Assembly: GCA_030706145.1 (NCBI GenBank)
Contig: JAUZPB010000022.1
Location: forward strand, 1 to 48,735
Length of the DNA: 48,735 bases
Source of the DNA: Bacteroidota bacterium
GTDB taxonomy: Bacteria > Bacteroidota > Ignavibacteria > Ignavibacteriales > SURF-24
Direction of reading: 5' to 3'
The notes under the pieces were generated by a model. That model saw nothing but the letters and a program-made list of their open reading frames with translations, had not been told where the DNA came from and searched no databases. Both the position numbers and the translations under genes were made by a program. Positions 3,234-32,901 of the stretch are shown piece after piece. Numbering within the stretch: position 1 is the stretch's first letter; each line of letters opens with the position of its first letter.

Positions 3234-4844
3234 ATGAAAGGGAAAATTATACTACTAATTTTACTGATAACATTTGCAGCAATTCAAATTACTTACGGGC
3301 AAAGCAATAATGTTTATATTGGAGCTGCAGCCTGCGGCACTTGCCATACAGCCGGAGGAGCTGCAGCACAAAAGCCTACATTCGACAGTTGGAAAGGCAC
3401 ATTGCATGCAGTTGCACATGATTCGATTTCAGCGCAAAATGCCTTTTATGGTTATGACTGTTTACAATGTCATAATACTGGCTGGGATCCAGCTCTAACG
3501 AACAGAGGAGCAGATGAGTTTGTAACTAAAGATACGACAAAAAAACCAAATTATGTGATAACTGATCAAACAAAATGGAATCTTGTAAAGAACGTAGGCT
3601 GTGAAGCTTGTCATGGACCAATGGGAGATGCAAGCACAGGGCAGCTAAGCTCCACACACTGGGGTTTTGGTACGACAAACAAGCCTAGCTATTCGGCAGC
3701 CGTTTGCGGCAGTTGTCATCAAGGTGATCATGATCCATTTTTTGAGGAATGGAAATTATCAGGACACGCAAAGTCGACACAGTCATCTTTTGTTGTAAAT
3801 AACAAAGCATGTGTAAGATGTCATGTAGCTCAAAGTTTTGTCCTTTATATAAGTAATCCATCGGCCTATAGAGACACACTACTTGTAACCGGAGCCGATA
3901 TTACACCAATTACATGTGCAACTTGTCACGATCCACACAGCAGGAAGAATGATTTCCAATTAAGATTTGCTTCGACAAATAAGGCCGTAATTTGTGATGA
4001 ATGTCACAATGCAGAGATAGATTCAGTCGATGTAAACGTAGCGCCACATCATGCAACTTCAGAGATATTTTCTGGAAAGAACTTCGGTTTCCATTATCCT
4101 GGTACAACATATCAGAATTCTGCACATCCCACTGTTGTCTCAGATACCAATTTCCTAAAGACTAAGGGACTGGAAGACAAATTAAGATGCATGGTTTGCC
4201 ATATGCATACAGATCCATACAACAACATCACGAAGAAAGCAGTTGTAGGGCACACATTTTCTCCAAATCCAAAGGCTTGCATGGTATGTCATACAGACTA
4301 TACTTCAAAAGTCGACACTTCAAATCATGCAAAACAGTTTGATTATCGTGGAATGCAGACAAAAACAGATAGTTTGATGAATGCCCTTGCAACAAAGCTA
4401 AAGGGTGCTTCAAAAGCAGATTCAGCTACCTTGTCTTTCAAGCAGGCAAATTACAATTTACTTGCAGCACAAGCAGAAGGAAGTCATGGAATTCACAACA
4501 CAAAGCTTGTACAGCAACTGTTGGTTGATGCAATTACCAATTTTACTCCAACAAGTGTCGAAGCGCTAAAAGGAGTTCCTGTATCTTATAGTTTGAGCCA
4601 GAACTATCCAAATCCGTTCAACCCGACGACACAGATAAAGTTTTCAATTGCGCAGGCAGGAAACGTTGCAATAAGAGTTTATGATGCCATTGGAAACGAA
4701 ATTGAAACACTTCATAATGGATATTTGGCAGCGGGTAATTACAGTGTAAGCTGGAATGCATCCAGATACTCCTCAGGTGTATATTATTATAAGATAACAG
4801 CTGGCAACTTTGAGATGGTAAAAAAGATGCTTCTTGTCAAATAG
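3234..4844 (+). CDS. Secreted nine-haem c-type cytochrome with type IX sorting domain
   Basis: The product is 536 residues. A signal peptide (about 1-22, ending TYGQ) sends it through Sec. Nine CxxCH haem-binding motifs follow: CGTCH (34-38), CLQCH (76-80), CEACH, CGSCH, CVRCH, CATCH, CDECH, CMVCH, and CMVCH at 349-353. The first part (VYIGAAACGTCH...W.GTLHAVAH) resembles the cytochrome c554 family. A helical stretch (about 365-440, with NYNLLAAQ and GSHGIHN) resembles the C-terminal helix region of NrfA-type multihaem cytochromes. The last 85 residues start with SQNYPNPFNPTT and end KKMLLVK, a type A sorting domain for type IX secretion. The protein should therefore be exported across the outer membrane and held at the surface. 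I infer a role in extracellular or periplasm-to-surface electron transfer, partner unknown. The transcription unit appears to be a single gene with its own terminator. Confidence 0.92.
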   Translation: MKGKIILLILLITFAAIQITYGQSNNVYIGAAACGTCHTAGGAAAQKPTFDSWKGTLHAVAHDSISAQNAFYGYDCLQCHNTGWDPALTNRGADEFVTKDTTKKPNYVITDQTKWNLVKNVGCEACHGPMGDASTGQLSSTHWGFGTTNKPSYSAAVCGSCHQGDHDPFFEEWKLSGHAKSTQSSFVVNNKACVRCHVAQSFVLYISNPSAYRDTLLVTGADITPITCATCHDPHSRKNDFQLRFASTNKAVICDECHNAEIDSVDVNVAPHHATSEIFSGKNFGFHYPGTTYQNSAHPTVVSDTNFLKTKGLEDKLRCMVCHMHTDPYNNITKKAVVGHTFSPNPKACMVCHTDYTSKVDTSNHAKQFDYRGMQTKTDSLMNALATKLKGASKADSATLSFKQANYNLLAAQAEGSHGIHNTKLVQQLLVDAITNFTPTSVEALKGVPVSYSLSQNYPNPFNPTTQIKFSIAQAGNVAIRVYDAIGNEIETLHNGYLAAGNYSVSWNASRYSSGVYYYKITAGNFEMVKKMLLVK

Positions 4845-4900: not shown

Positions 4901-4948
4901 GGGGCTATTTCTGATAAAGCAAATTCCTCAGAGATAGCCCCTTTTTTC
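4901..4948 (+). terminator. Rho-independent terminator after the cytochrome gene
   Basis: A GGGGCTAT..CTGA arm (4901-4914) pairs with TCAGAGATAGCCCC (4928-4941), with one G-U-type mismatch and a 13-base loop. A run of six T follows. It lies 57 bases after the stop codon. Confidence 0.9.
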
Positions 4949-8643: not shown

Positions 8644-9249
8644 TTATTTAAGGTCTTCCTGTTGGCTTGTAAGCTTAGAAGACTCATTGGTATTTGAACC
8701 AGGAATAAGACTTTTTTGTGTGCTTGAAAAGATAAGAAGAAGTATAACACCAATAGAGACAGCCATATCTGCAACGTTAAAGACAGGCCAGCGGTCATAA
8801 GTATAGCCAAGGAAATGAATGTCAAAGAAATCCACGTCAATAAAATCAACAACCTTACCGAAAAAAAGAGGTGCATAGCCGTAGAAGACGCCGTAAAAAA
8901 CGCGGTCGATCAGATTACCAACTGCGCCGCCTAAAATTATAGCCAATGATATCCTGAGTGTCAGGCTTTCTTTTCTAATTTTGAACAAATAGTAGATTAT
9001 GGCAATACTAGCAGCAATAGAAAAGAGCGATAAGAACAGTTTAGAGTTAATACCCAGATCAATGCCAAAAGCCATTCCGGGATTTTCTATATAAGTAAAT
9101 CTTAAAATCTGGCCCAAAACATCGTGTTTATCTCCATATAACATTCCTCTATGATGAATATTAAGGAATGGAATAGAAAAGCCTTTAACAATCAATTTTG
9201 TTATCTGATCAACGATCAGAATAAATAAGGAAATAAATAATACTCGCAA
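8644..9249 (-). CDS. lspA: Lipoprotein signal peptidase II, downstream copy
   Basis: This inner-membrane aspartyl protease removes signal peptides from diacylglyceryl-modified prolipoproteins. The 201 residues contain four hydrophobic segments, the ENPGMAFG motif (55-62), GNLIDR with catalytic Asp115, and FNVADM with catalytic Asp161. Both active-site Asp are present, so the enzyme looks functional. It starts with TTG at 9249, 12 bases after the stop of a close paralog. The first ~175 residues align without gaps to that paralog, with roughly two thirds identical by hand count. Only the hydrophilic C-terminal tails differ completely. This points to a tandem duplication followed by divergence. 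Confidence 0.93.
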   Translation of the reverse strand: MRVLFISLFILIVDQITKLIVKGFSIPFLNIHHRGMLYGDKHDVLGQILRFTYIENPGMAFGIDLGINSKLFLSLFSIAASIAIIYYLFKIRKESLTLRISLAIILGGAVGNLIDRVFYGVFYGYAPLFFGKVVDFIDVDFFDIHFLGYTYDRWPVFNVADMAVSIGVILLLIFSSTQKSLIPGSNTNESSKLTSQQEDLK

Positions 9250-9261
9250 AATTCAATACTC

Positions 9262-9879
9262 TCAGTTTTCTTCGTCTTTTTTCACATCAGAATCATTTTC
9301 CAGAACAATAGTACCAGCAGAATCGTTCTGCTGCATTTGAGGTGTTTCCTTTCTGCTAAAAAAAAGTAGCAAGCAAACGCCAAAAGTAACGGCAACATCA
9401 GCAATATTAAAAATCGGGAAGCGGTCAATAATAAAGCCAAATAGATTGACAGGATAGAAGTTAAATTCAAACAGATCTACAACCTTGCCAAAAAAAACAG
9501 GAGCATAGCCAAAAAAGATGCCATAGAAAGCTCTGTCGATAAAATTACCGATAGCTCCAGCAAGAATAAGAGCCAAAGCAATTCTTAGGATCAATCTCTC
9601 ATTTCTAACTTTATATAAGTAATAGACAATGCCTACACTAGCAAAAGCAGAAAACAAAGAAAGAAACAATTTTGAAGTTACTCCAAGACCGATTCCGAAT
9701 GCCATCCCAGGGTTTTCAACAAAAGTAATCCTTAAAAAGGAACCCAAGAAGTTATGTGTTTCGGCATAACTCATCCCATCTATATGTATTTTTAGAAAAG
9801 GGATCGAAAACCCTTTGACGCATAATTTCGAAATCTGATCTGCCAGAACTACAAACAGAGAAAGAAAAAGTACTCTCAA
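9262..9879 (-). CDS. lspA: Lipoprotein signal peptidase II, upstream paralog
   Basis: The product is 205 residues and belongs to the same family as its neighbour. It has VENPGMAFG (54-62), GNFIDR with Asp115, and FNIADV with Asp161, at the same residue numbers as the other copy. Four transmembrane segments are followed by an acidic, Asp/Glu/Lys-rich tail (about 175-205). The start is TTG at 9879, as in the sister gene, and both are preceded by a TGAG purine stretch. The gene begins 29 bases after the DksA-like gene and is probably in the same operon. The loops between 131 and 152 differ most from the sister copy, so the two enzymes might prefer different lipoprotein substrates. That is speculative. 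Confidence 0.93.
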   Translation of the reverse strand: MRVLFLSLFVVLADQISKLCVKGFSIPFLKIHIDGMSYAETHNFLGSFLRITFVENPGMAFGIGLGVTSKLFLSLFSAFASVGIVYYLYKVRNERLILRIALALILAGAIGNFIDRAFYGIFFGYAPVFFGKVVDLFEFNFYPVNLFGFIIDRFPIFNIADVAVTFGVCLLLFFSRKETPQMQQNDSAGTIVLENDSDVKKDEEN

Positions 9880-30978: not shown

Positions 30979-32724
30979 CTACTTTGCAAGAACTATTTTA
31001 ATGGTGTTATTAAAACTACCTGCTGACATCCTAATGAAATAAATTCCGCTGGCAAGGCTGCTACCATCTAAGGTAAAAGAATACTGCCCCTTTTCCCTAC
31101 TACCTTCAAAAAGCGTAGATATTTTTACACCCAAAACATTATACAGTTCCAATCTAACAAAAGACTCAGCTGGAATTGAATAGGAAATTTTTGTAGTAGG
31201 ATTAAAAGGATTTGGATAGTTCTGTTCAAGGACAAAACTATTGGGTATGTTATTTTTCTTGTCACTAACGTCAGTTGCCAGGCTAAGTACATAATCGAGA
31301 GCCTTTTTGGCATCAATTATTCCCCAGCCATAGAATCTATCAGGATTTGATTTATTTGAACCGCTATTTCTAAGGGCATCTCTTATCTGGACTGGAGTAG
31401 CCTTTGGATCAGCAGATAAAAGTAAGGCTGCAACACCCGCTGTCAAAGGGCAGCTAAAAGAAGTCCCGCTTCCACTTACATACTCATTTGGGGCAGTAGA
31501 GCCTGCCAGAGTATCGGACACCCCCATAGCCATTACATCAGGCTTAATTCTTCCATCTGAAGTCGGTCCAATGCTACTAAAATAGGCTTTCTTTCCTAAG
31601 TAATCGACAGCTCCAACTGTAACAATGCTATCTGCATCGGCAGGAGCACCAAGTGTATTATGTTCTGAATTTTCTCCTTCATTTCCGGCAGAAACGACCA
31701 CCACAATGCCTTTTCTTGCTGCAAGAGCAGCAGCTTTAGTTATTCTAGCTGTATGGCCATTCATATCCTGCCAGGTATAGCTCTGGTAGGGCGGATCAAA
31801 AGTAAGATAGCCAAGGGAAGTAGAAATAACATCAACGCCAATGCTATCGGCCCATTCCATAGCAGCTATCCAATTATCTTCCTCAACAGGAGTTTCGCTT
31901 TCTGTATTTTCTGTTTTGGCCAATATAAAATTAGCTTCATAAGCCGGGCCTATTAATTTGCTATCTTTGAAGCCGCCGACTGCAGAAAGTGTTGCAGTGC
32001 CATGAGAGCCTTCACCTTTAAGGTTAGGGGCATCGCCTACATTGGGGCCATTATTTACAAAATCCCACTTAGCCAAAATCTTCATCTTGCTGAAGACCTC
32101 GTGAGCTAAGTTACTAAAGCCAGCATCAAAGACACCAACTGTTACACCTTTGCCTGAATACCCCAAAGCATGAACAGTTGGCACATTTATCTGCTGAAGC
32201 TGTGTAAAAGAGCTCCCATAGTTAAGAGAATAAATATCTTTTTTTAGAGTATTATTGGAAATGCCGGCTGGTTTACTTAAATCTCCAATATTTAACTTAA
32301 ATTTTCCTACCAGGTCTACTTGCTTTACATATGGAAGAGAGGAAACAAGTTTGACCATACGGGCACTAAGAAAACCACTAACTCCGTTAAACCACTTAGA
32401 TTTTTGTTTAAGAAGAAAGCCATAATTCTTCAGGAGATTCACATAGTCCGGAAAGATGGGGTAATCAGTTATGTCAATCAAAGCATCTTTATCAAGCAGT
32501 TTTGCCCGTCTTTGAACAGATTTTTCGCCTAAATAATTTTCAGGCTGCATTTTAGCAGTCTCTTTATTTAGTCCTTTATCTGAAAAAAACACCCAGACAA
32601 GTACTTTTTCATCTGGTTTAACTGAGCTAATCCTTGATCTTAAGGCTTCAGTTATTTTGCCGCCATTTGCAAAGGCAGCTGTACAAAAAAAGAATAGAAA
32701 TAAAAGTATTAAACTCTTACGCAT
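30979..32724 (-). CDS. Secreted subtilisin-like (S8) serine protease with type IX sorting domain
   Basis: The product is 581 residues. A signal peptide (1-19, ending AFAN) is followed by a propeptide-like region (about 20-165). The S8 catalytic domain has Asp200 (VGVFDAGF), His241 (GSHGTAT), oxyanion Asn348 (VVSAGNEG) and Ser422 (SGTSFSCP), a complete active site. Residues about 490-581 form a type A C-terminal sorting domain (LEQNYPNPFNPTTKISYSIP... to KIVLAK). The enzyme is expected outside the cell or on its surface, degrading peptides or maturing other exported proteins. It is a single gene on the minus strand, between metG and the foldase operon, with its own terminator. Confidence 0.95.
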   Translation of the reverse strand: MRKSLILLFLFFFCTAAFANGGKITEALRSRISSVKPDEKVLVWVFFSDKGLNKETAKMQPENYLGEKSVQRRAKLLDKDALIDITDYPIFPDYVNLLKNYGFLLKQKSKWFNGVSGFLSARMVKLVSSLPYVKQVDLVGKFKLNIGDLSKPAGISNNTLKKDIYSLNYGSSFTQLQQINVPTVHALGYSGKGVTVGVFDAGFSNLAHEVFSKMKILAKWDFVNNGPNVGDAPNLKGEGSHGTATLSAVGGFKDSKLIGPAYEANFILAKTENTESETPVEEDNWIAAMEWADSIGVDVISTSLGYLTFDPPYQSYTWQDMNGHTARITKAAALAARKGIVVVVSAGNEGENSEHNTLGAPADADSIVTVGAVDYLGKKAYFSSIGPTSDGRIKPDVMAMGVSDTLAGSTAPNEYVSGSGTSFSCPLTAGVAALLLSADPKATPVQIRDALRNSGSNKSNPDRFYGWGIIDAKKALDYVLSLATDVSDKKNNIPNSFVLEQNYPNPFNPTTKISYSIPAESFVRLELYNVLGVKISTLFEGSREKGQYSFTLDGSSLASGIYFIRMSAGSFNNTIKIVLAK

Positions 32725-32901
32725 GTTATCCCAAAAGTTAATCGATTATAAATCATATTAAATTATAAAATATAAGTGATAAAAAGTACACAATAGTCAG
32801 AATGTAAGAAAGACAGATCACCTGTAAAAATTAGATTTTAGATACTATTTAGATTATAGGAGAAAAAAGGCAAAAAGATAATGCAATTATGCAGTGTGCT
32901 T

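What the first reader, a model, noticed from the sequence alone, without database searches (positions are those of the whole stretch)
3234..4844. A nine-haem cytochrome predicted to be displayed by type IX secretion
Nine CxxCH motifs and a type A sorting domain (SQNYPNPFNPTT...KKMLLVK) occur in one polypeptide. Type IX secretion normally moves folded proteins across the outer membrane, so a fully haem-loaded cytochrome would be carried to the surface after periplasmic maturation. That suggests an extracellular electron-transfer route different from porin-cytochrome conduits. The gene stands alone with its own terminator and has no visible conduit partner.
Basis: partly seen in the sequence, partly recalled or inferred. 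Interest (0 to 1): 0.6.

Follow-up and report, generated by a model that had tools for sequence, protein, structure and literature searches.

The report
Secreted nine-haem OcwA-like surface reductase
This gene encodes a nine-haem electron-carrying protein of the same type as a known cell-surface metal reductase, tagged for delivery to the outside of the cell by the type IX secretion system; the genome also encodes a porin-cytochrome wire that could feed it electrons, although the pathway has not been tested in the laboratory.

Summary
ORF 3234-4844 (536 aa) has a signal peptide, nine CxxCH motifs and a C-terminal type A sorting domain above its curated cut-off. The genome (an Ignavibacteria-type genome near Melioribacteraceae) has about 156 proteins with such a domain, a SprA translocon, PorV and PorU-like proteins. 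Only two of the 156 are multihaem: this protein and a paralogue.

The cytochrome part is not MtrC-like. Its closest solved relatives are OcwA (nonahaem) and 6qvm (probably OmhA), both linked to extracellular metal reduction in Gram-positive bacteria. Haem order matches OcwA, as do both distal His sites and the count of distal ligands. All 56 full-length relatives examined (8-9 haems) carry the sorting domain.

The inference of a route without a conduit is not supported. In eight relatives, in two separate branches of the family tree, the gene heads a cluster of tetrahaem cytochrome, porin, 14-haem cytochrome and hexahaem lipoprotein, the composition Shi et al. 2014 described for Ignavibacterium album. 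The window's own genome has that cluster intact on other contigs.

Best reading: a type IX-secreted OcwA-type terminal reductase working downstream of a porin-cytochrome conduit. Export, haem loading and substrate are untested. It is a new variant of a known kind.

The parts
3234..3302 (+). Sec-type signal peptide, residues 1-22 or 23 (MKGKIILLILLITFAAIQITYGQ); Q23 is invariant in the 16 closest relatives
   Evidence: sequence; alignment A1
3315..4553 (+). Nonahaem cytochrome region of OcwA type (residues 28-440)
   Evidence: profile of 16 relatives finds OcwA 6i5b at E 1.1e-27 and 6qvm at 3.1e-28
3330..3617 (+). N-terminal half resembling tetrahaem cytochrome c554
   Evidence: PF13435 E 2.8e-9, residues 33-128; 1bvb/1ft5 c554 E 5e-5
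4182..4550 (+). C-terminal part resembling NrfA, with the invariant GxH motif (residues 419-421) in the helical region after the last haem
   Evidence: PF02335 E 6.4e-6, residues 317-439; H421 invariant
3333..3347 (+). haem site 1 CGTCH
3459..3473 (+). haem site 2 CLQCH, predicted high-spin by homology with OcwA haem 2
3600..3614 (+). haem site 3 CEACH
3705..3719 (+). haem site 4 CGSCH
3729..3731 (+). His166, aligned with OcwA His281 of the HH pair over haem 2; conserved in 14 of 16 close relatives
3810..3824 (+). haem site 5 CVRCH, predicted high-spin by homology with OcwA haem 5
3915..3929 (+). haem site 6 CATCH
3993..4007 (+). haem site 7 CDECH
4047..4052 (+). His272-His273, aligned with the OcwA HH380/381 pair over haem 5; H272 invariant in 31 of 31
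4188..4202 (+). haem site 8 CMVCH
4278..4292 (+). haem site 9 CMVCH
4605..4832 (+). T9SS type A sorting domain (QNYPNPFNPTT...KKMLLVK)
   Evidence: TIGR04183 38.4 bits, cut-off 23; PF18962 39.8 bits, cut-off 27
4901..4947 (+). intrinsic terminator: 14-bp stem then U6
   Evidence: -24.2 kcal/mol, z -5.97

Best explanation
The gene encodes a secreted terminal reductase of the OcwA type. Inferred steps: (1) the Sec pathway brings the chain to the periplasm, where c-type haem attachment fills nine sites and the cytochrome folds. (2) The type A sorting domain hands the folded protein to PorV and SprA, which pass it through the outer membrane, and a PorU-type sortase probably removes the domain and releases or anchors the protein. 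(3) Outside the cell it takes electrons from an I. album-type porin-cytochrome conduit, encoded elsewhere in this genome as an 18-haem/cytochrome b inner-membrane protein, a periplasmic tetrahaem, a porin, a 14-haem and a hexahaem lipoprotein. (4) It passes them along its haem chain to minerals, electrodes, shuttles or oxyanions, with haems 2 and 5 predicted to have open coordination sites as in OcwA. The domain anatomy, the family membership, the presence of the machinery and the conduit, and the gene linkage in relatives are shown by sequence. Export, haem loading, partner contact and substrate are inferred.
For: Nine CxxCH and a sorting domain over cut-off. OcwA 6i5b and 6qvm are the two best of 31 solved-structure hits, and no MtrC/OmcA/UndA chain appears (6I5B is OcwA). 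Haems 3-9 align one to one with OcwA. The two OcwA active-site HH pairs align with H166 and H272/H273. Seven distal His are conserved beyond the nine proximal ones (58, 142, 178, 235, 298, 340, 421; 28 to 31 of 31), equal to the seven six-coordinate haems of OcwA. 56 of 56 full-length relatives have the sorting domain. T9SS components. Conduit in own genome. Linkage of the nonahaem to the conduit in seven genomes of one clade and in one genome of the other major clade. 47 of 49 genomes with the nonahaem also have the porin, against 138 of 245 without it (genomes are related, so the p-value is not independent evidence). T9SS moves folded cargo through SprA and reads the CTD through PorV (PMC9251779).
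Against: In this genome the gene is not next to the conduit and has its own terminator. 138 sampled genomes have the porin without a hit to the nonahaem at the threshold, so the conduit does not need it. GldM/PorM was not found (inconclusive). The structure model failed, so the haem chain rests on homology. There is no expression, localisation or haem evidence. Relatives of the family reduce nitrite and hydroxylamine, so the substrate need not be a mineral.
Confidence: 0.6

Rival explanations
1. An extracellular enzyme that reduces soluble nitrogen oxyanions or hydroxylamine (detoxification or scavenging), exported by T9SS, with electrons from shuttles rather than a dedicated conduit.
For: The fold family is NrfA, octahaem nitrite reductase, HAO and c554. 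OcwA itself reduces nitrite and hydroxylamine, though slowly (PMC6703420). Two high-spin sites are predicted.
Against: No CxxCK catalytic haem. The closest members, OcwA and the probable OmhA, are extracellular metal or electrode reductases. The gene is linked to an electron conduit in relatives.
Confidence: 0.17
2. A route without a conduit: the exported cytochrome is charged before export or works as a released or matrix electron carrier, independent of porin-cytochrome complexes.
For: The gene is isolated in this genome with its own terminator. It was not found in the conduit cluster of most relatives examined. 2 of 49 genomes with the nonahaem lack a detected porin.
Against: The conduit cluster is intact in this genome. 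Linkage to the same cluster occurs in two separate branches of the family. A haem protein loaded once before export could carry only a few electrons.
Confidence: 0.13
3. A periplasmic multihaem cytochrome whose C-terminal beta-sandwich is not used for export.
For: Export has not been shown, and the motor subunit GldM/PorM was not detected.
Against: The domain is kept in 56 of 56 relatives across families, down to about 30% identity in the haem part. SprA, PorV and PorU-type proteins are present.
Confidence: 0.08
4. An MtrC/OmcA-type decahaem outer-membrane reductase, as one Pfam hit suggests.
For: PF22113 (MtrC/MtrF domain II/IV) scores 53.7 bits, over its cut-off of 30.
Against: The same model also hits the NrfA/OcwA-type relatives and the 14-haem protein. 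No MtrC, MtrF, OmcA or UndA chain is among the 31 solved-structure hits. There are nine haems, not ten, in c554 plus NrfA order.
Confidence: 0.02

Closest known systems
OcwA of Thermincola potens (PDB 6I5B; Costa et al. 2019, PMC6703420)
   Same: Nine CxxCH haems in c554 plus NrfA order, conserved HH sites over haems 2 and 5, a count of seven further distal ligands, the C-terminal G-x-HN motif; cell-surface location is known for OcwA and predicted here.
   Different: OcwA is in a Gram-positive cell wall without a T9SS domain and has a beta-sheet insert at residues 75-156. OcwA haem 9 is His/Met, whereas here seven distal His are conserved, which suggests His/His. The two are distant: OcwA is found significantly only with the family profile, not with the window sequence alone.
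OmhA of Carboxydothermus ferrireducens (11 haems; 6qvm is probably this protein, matched by its 681-aa length and title, not confirmed)
   Same: Best profile match (E 3e-28); OmhA is an extracellular multihaem upregulated on ferrihydrite (PMC7829351).
   Different: Eleven haems, Gram-positive, no T9SS domain.
Porin-cytochrome (Pcc) cluster of Ignavibacterium album, IALB_1837-1840 (Shi et al. 2014, PMC4245776)
   Same: The own-genome and relatives' conduit has the same composition: a periplasmic cytochrome, a porin, a 14-haem protein of about 400 aa and an outer-membrane cytochrome with atypical haem motifs.
   Different: The T9SS nonahaem was not found in the passages of the Pcc description that were read; here it is an extra outermost component, adjacent in eight relatives and unlinked in the window genome. 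Identity to the IALB proteins was not tested directly.
T9SS type A cargo proteins (TIGR04183/PF18962)
   Same: C-terminal sorting domain; SprA, PorV and PorU-type genes in the genome.
   Different: Known cargo are mostly proteases, glycosidases and adhesins (own knowledge). No paper in the searched library joins 'multiheme' with 'type IX secretion'.

Membership tests
OcwA-type nonahaem cytochromes (NrfA superfamily) | nine c-type haem motifs | tested here: met
   9 CxxCH; 52 of 56 relatives have 9, four have 8
OcwA-type nonahaem cytochromes (NrfA superfamily) | sequence homology over c554-like and NrfA-like halves | tested here: met
   6i5b E 1.1e-27 with haems 3-9 aligned in order; PF13435 and PF02335 over cut-off
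OcwA-type nonahaem cytochromes (NrfA superfamily) | two five-coordinate haems (2 and 5) under HH pairs | tested here: inconclusive
   H166 and H272/H273 align with the two HH pairs and distal His count is seven; coordination itself needs spectroscopy
OcwA-type nonahaem cytochromes (NrfA superfamily) | three-helix bundle and continuous haem chain | tested here: inconclusive
   AlphaFold2 with two sequences gave a mean pLDDT of 37
NrfA nitrite reductase | five haems with CxxCK catalytic haem | tested here: not met
   nine haems, no CxxCK
MtrC/OmcA decahaem family | ten haems and TIGR03507 match | tested here: not met
   nine haems; TIGR03507 absent from hits up to E 1; no MtrC-type chain
T9SS type A cargo | signal peptide plus C-terminal TIGR04183/PF18962 domain over cut-off | tested here: met
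   signal peptide judged by eye
T9SS type A cargo | translocon, shuttle and sortase in the genome | tested here: met
   SprA, PorV family, C25 peptidase of PorU type but below the NF033707 cut-off
T9SS type A cargo | rotary motor GldL/GldM (PorL/PorM) | tested here: inconclusive
   TIGR03517 none, PF12081 E 0.04; controls not informative
T9SS type A cargo | SprA/PorV-dependent appearance outside the cell | not testable with these tools
   needs fractionation or mutants
Pcc porin-cytochrome conduit component | gene cluster with porin, periplasmic and outer-membrane multihaem cytochromes | tested here: inconclusive
   linked in eight relatives in two family branches, not linked in the window genome, where the cluster is on C316/C25

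The most novel reading that the evidence does not exclude
A type IX secretion system carries fully haem-loaded multihaem cytochromes through the outer membrane, and in Ignavibacteria and neighbours this is a standard way to place an OcwA-type terminal reductase outside a porin-cytochrome conduit, alongside related lipid-anchored cytochromes at the same clusters.
Probability: 0.45. Interest if true: 0.75.

Novelty: new variant of a known kind. Interest (0 to 1): 0.58.

Why it matters
Getting large multihaem proteins to the outside is a central problem of extracellular respiration. Known outer-surface cytochromes of Gram-negative bacteria are mostly lipoproteins or depend on type II secretion (own knowledge). 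If T9SS does this job, it would be a further route, it would be a severe test of T9SS as a carrier of folded cofactor-loaded cargo, and it would place OcwA-type reductases, known from Gram-positive bacteria, on the surface of a widespread Gram-negative group. Annotation that labels such genes only as 'T9SS sorting domain protein' or 'MtrC-like' would miss them.

Tried and rejected
The MtrC/MtrF label from Pfam was rejected. The hit to NF041198 (UshA-like) scores 85 bits against a cut-off of 275 and reflects a shared c554-like stretch. I first took 6qvm for OcwA; the paper shows OcwA is 6I5B. The GldM searches were uninformative. Plasmid records gave only sorting-domain matches. Literature searches for multihaem proteins with type IX secretion found nothing relevant; the library lacks most subscription journals and preprints.

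Full report
Observation. The ORF at 3234-4844 is 536 aa, with a signal peptide, nine CxxCH motifs and a C-terminal type A sorting domain. Shuffled sequences of the same composition have 0.03 CxxCH on average. The domain is over its curated cut-off in both TIGR04183 and PF18962. A strong intrinsic terminator lies at 4901-4947, and no other window reading frame of 60 aa or more carries a CxxCH motif.

Genome. The window is contig C135 of a 5.3 Mb draft (98.5% complete). The only named relative, at 40-44% identity, is a Melioribacteraceae MAG, placed in the same order (G106). PorV-family proteins number 19 over cut-off, the best of them beside a PorU C-terminal fragment at the end of contig C4. 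A C25 peptidase frame of about 1,800 aa matches PorU below the curated cut-off. At least 150 sorting domains are scored. The motor subunit GldM was not detected, but the model rang in no control genome, and PF12081 rang weakly in unrelated controls, so this is inconclusive.

Repertoire. I fetched the regions of the sorting-domain hits and scanned them with a profile built from this family's domain: 156 distinct ORFs carry it, and only two have more than one CxxCH, the window protein and a 715-aa paralogue at C332. So T9SS-tagged multihaem proteins are rare in this genome and both are of one kind.

Family. A search of 294 genomes of the class finds 49 with a match at E<=1e-20. A profile of the cytochrome part finds more, including one full-length sequence from another part of the phylum. 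Of 56 distinct full-length relatives examined, 52 have nine CxxCH and four have eight, and all 56 carry the sorting domain. A maximum-likelihood tree splits them into a short clade of 16, with the window protein, and a long clade of 40, both with full support. The gene order cysS - nonahaem - aspartase - hydF-like is shared with f2-family genomes (L080, L081, L086). In L080 and L081 the gene is of the short clade and in L086 of the long clade. A conserved locus is therefore clear, but strict orthology is not.

Kind of cytochrome. Against solved structures, the profile's two best matches are 6qvm (E 3e-28) and 6i5b (E 1e-27); octahaem nitrite reductases, NrfA, HAO and c554 follow, and no MtrC/OmcA-type chain appears. 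6I5B is OcwA, the nonahaem surface terminal reductase of Thermincola potens, described as a c554-like tetrahaem part joined to an NrfA-like pentahaem part. 6qvm is probably OmhA of Carboxydothermus ferrireducens, by length and title. In OcwA haems 2 and 5 are five-coordinate beneath HH281/282 and HH380/381, six haems are bis-His and haem 9 is His/Met. In the profile alignment these two HH pairs (252/253 and 351/352 in chain numbering, a constant offset of 29) fall on window H166 and H272/H273. Apart from these and the nine proximal His, seven His are conserved in 28-31 of 31 relatives: 58, 142, 178, 235, 298, 340 and 421. That is exactly enough for seven six-coordinate haems. The coordination pattern is a prediction.

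Conduit. In seven genomes of genera g35, g37 and g40 the gene heads a cluster: nonahaem, tetrahaem of about 190 aa, a protein of about 425 aa without haem, a 14-haem protein of about 400 aa, and a hexahaem protein. An eighth genome (G272, long clade) has the same arrangement (L240). The 425-aa protein looks like an outer-membrane beta-barrel: its homologue in the window genome hits PF13505 just below cut-off, and the C-terminus is aromatic. Shi et al. describe IALB_1837-1840 of I. album as a Pcc cluster with a 400-aa, 14-haem periplasmic cytochrome and an outer-membrane cytochrome with atypical haem motifs, which matches in composition. The window genome has the porin and the first part of the 14-haem gene at the end of C316; the rest is on C25, with an exact 141-base overlap, giving one 408-aa, 14-haem frame. 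The cluster there is Rrf2 regulator, 18-haem protein fused to a b561-type domain, tetrahaem, porin, 14-haem and hexahaem lipoprotein. Across the class, 47 of 49 genomes with the nonahaem have the porin, against 138 of 245 others. Relatedness of genomes means the Fisher p-value overstates this.

A second form. In several genomes a 364-414 aa cytochrome with 5-6 CxxCH, homologous to the NrfA-like half and without the sorting domain, was found. In five of them (L229, L231-L234) it lies at the same conduit cluster. Several have a lipobox and a collagen-like GPxGPx stretch. One genome (G173) has both this and a T9SS nonahaem. This suggests, without proof, two ways of placing related modules at the surface.

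Mechanism. Shown by sequence: domain anatomy, family, presence of export components, presence of the conduit, and linkage in relatives. Established elsewhere: SprA passes folded proteins and PorV reads the CTD (PMC9251779). Inferred: haem loading before export, sortase processing, contact with the conduit, and reduction of minerals, electrodes, shuttles or oxyanions.

Verdict. It is a new variant: an OcwA-type reductase carrying a type IX export signal. No earlier description was found in the searched open library, which is not proof that none exists.

Noticed in passing
window 8644-9249 and 9262-9879 (-): Two tandem paralogous genes that look like lspA (signal peptidase II); close relatives' contigs show one copy at this place. 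Identification is by eye.
   Followed up: no
window 30982-32745 (-): S8 subtilase with a T9SS sorting domain, a second T9SS cargo in the window.
   Followed up: no
L094 8157-11220 (own genome, C316): Rrf2-type regulator followed by an 18-haem cytochrome fused to a b561-type membrane domain at the head of the conduit cluster; a candidate quinol-side entry.
   Followed up: partly
L229 6110-7321, L231 4179-5351, L232 7522-8763, L233 4320-5561, L234 5513-6646, L237 5507-6598: Cytochromes with 5-6 CxxCH homologous to the C-terminal part of the nonahaem; several have a lipobox and a collagen-like GPxGPx linker, and those on L229 and L231-L234 lie next to the porin-cytochrome cluster.
   Followed up: partly
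L077 7492-12523 and L082 7883-12583: Two T9SS-tagged multihaem genes of this family close together, one of the short and one of the long type.
   Followed up: no
L040 (G000:C332:13341-14606, -): Own-genome paralogue, 715 aa, nine CxxCH and sorting domain, 31% identical, with an N-terminal extension of unclear fold.
   Followed up: partly
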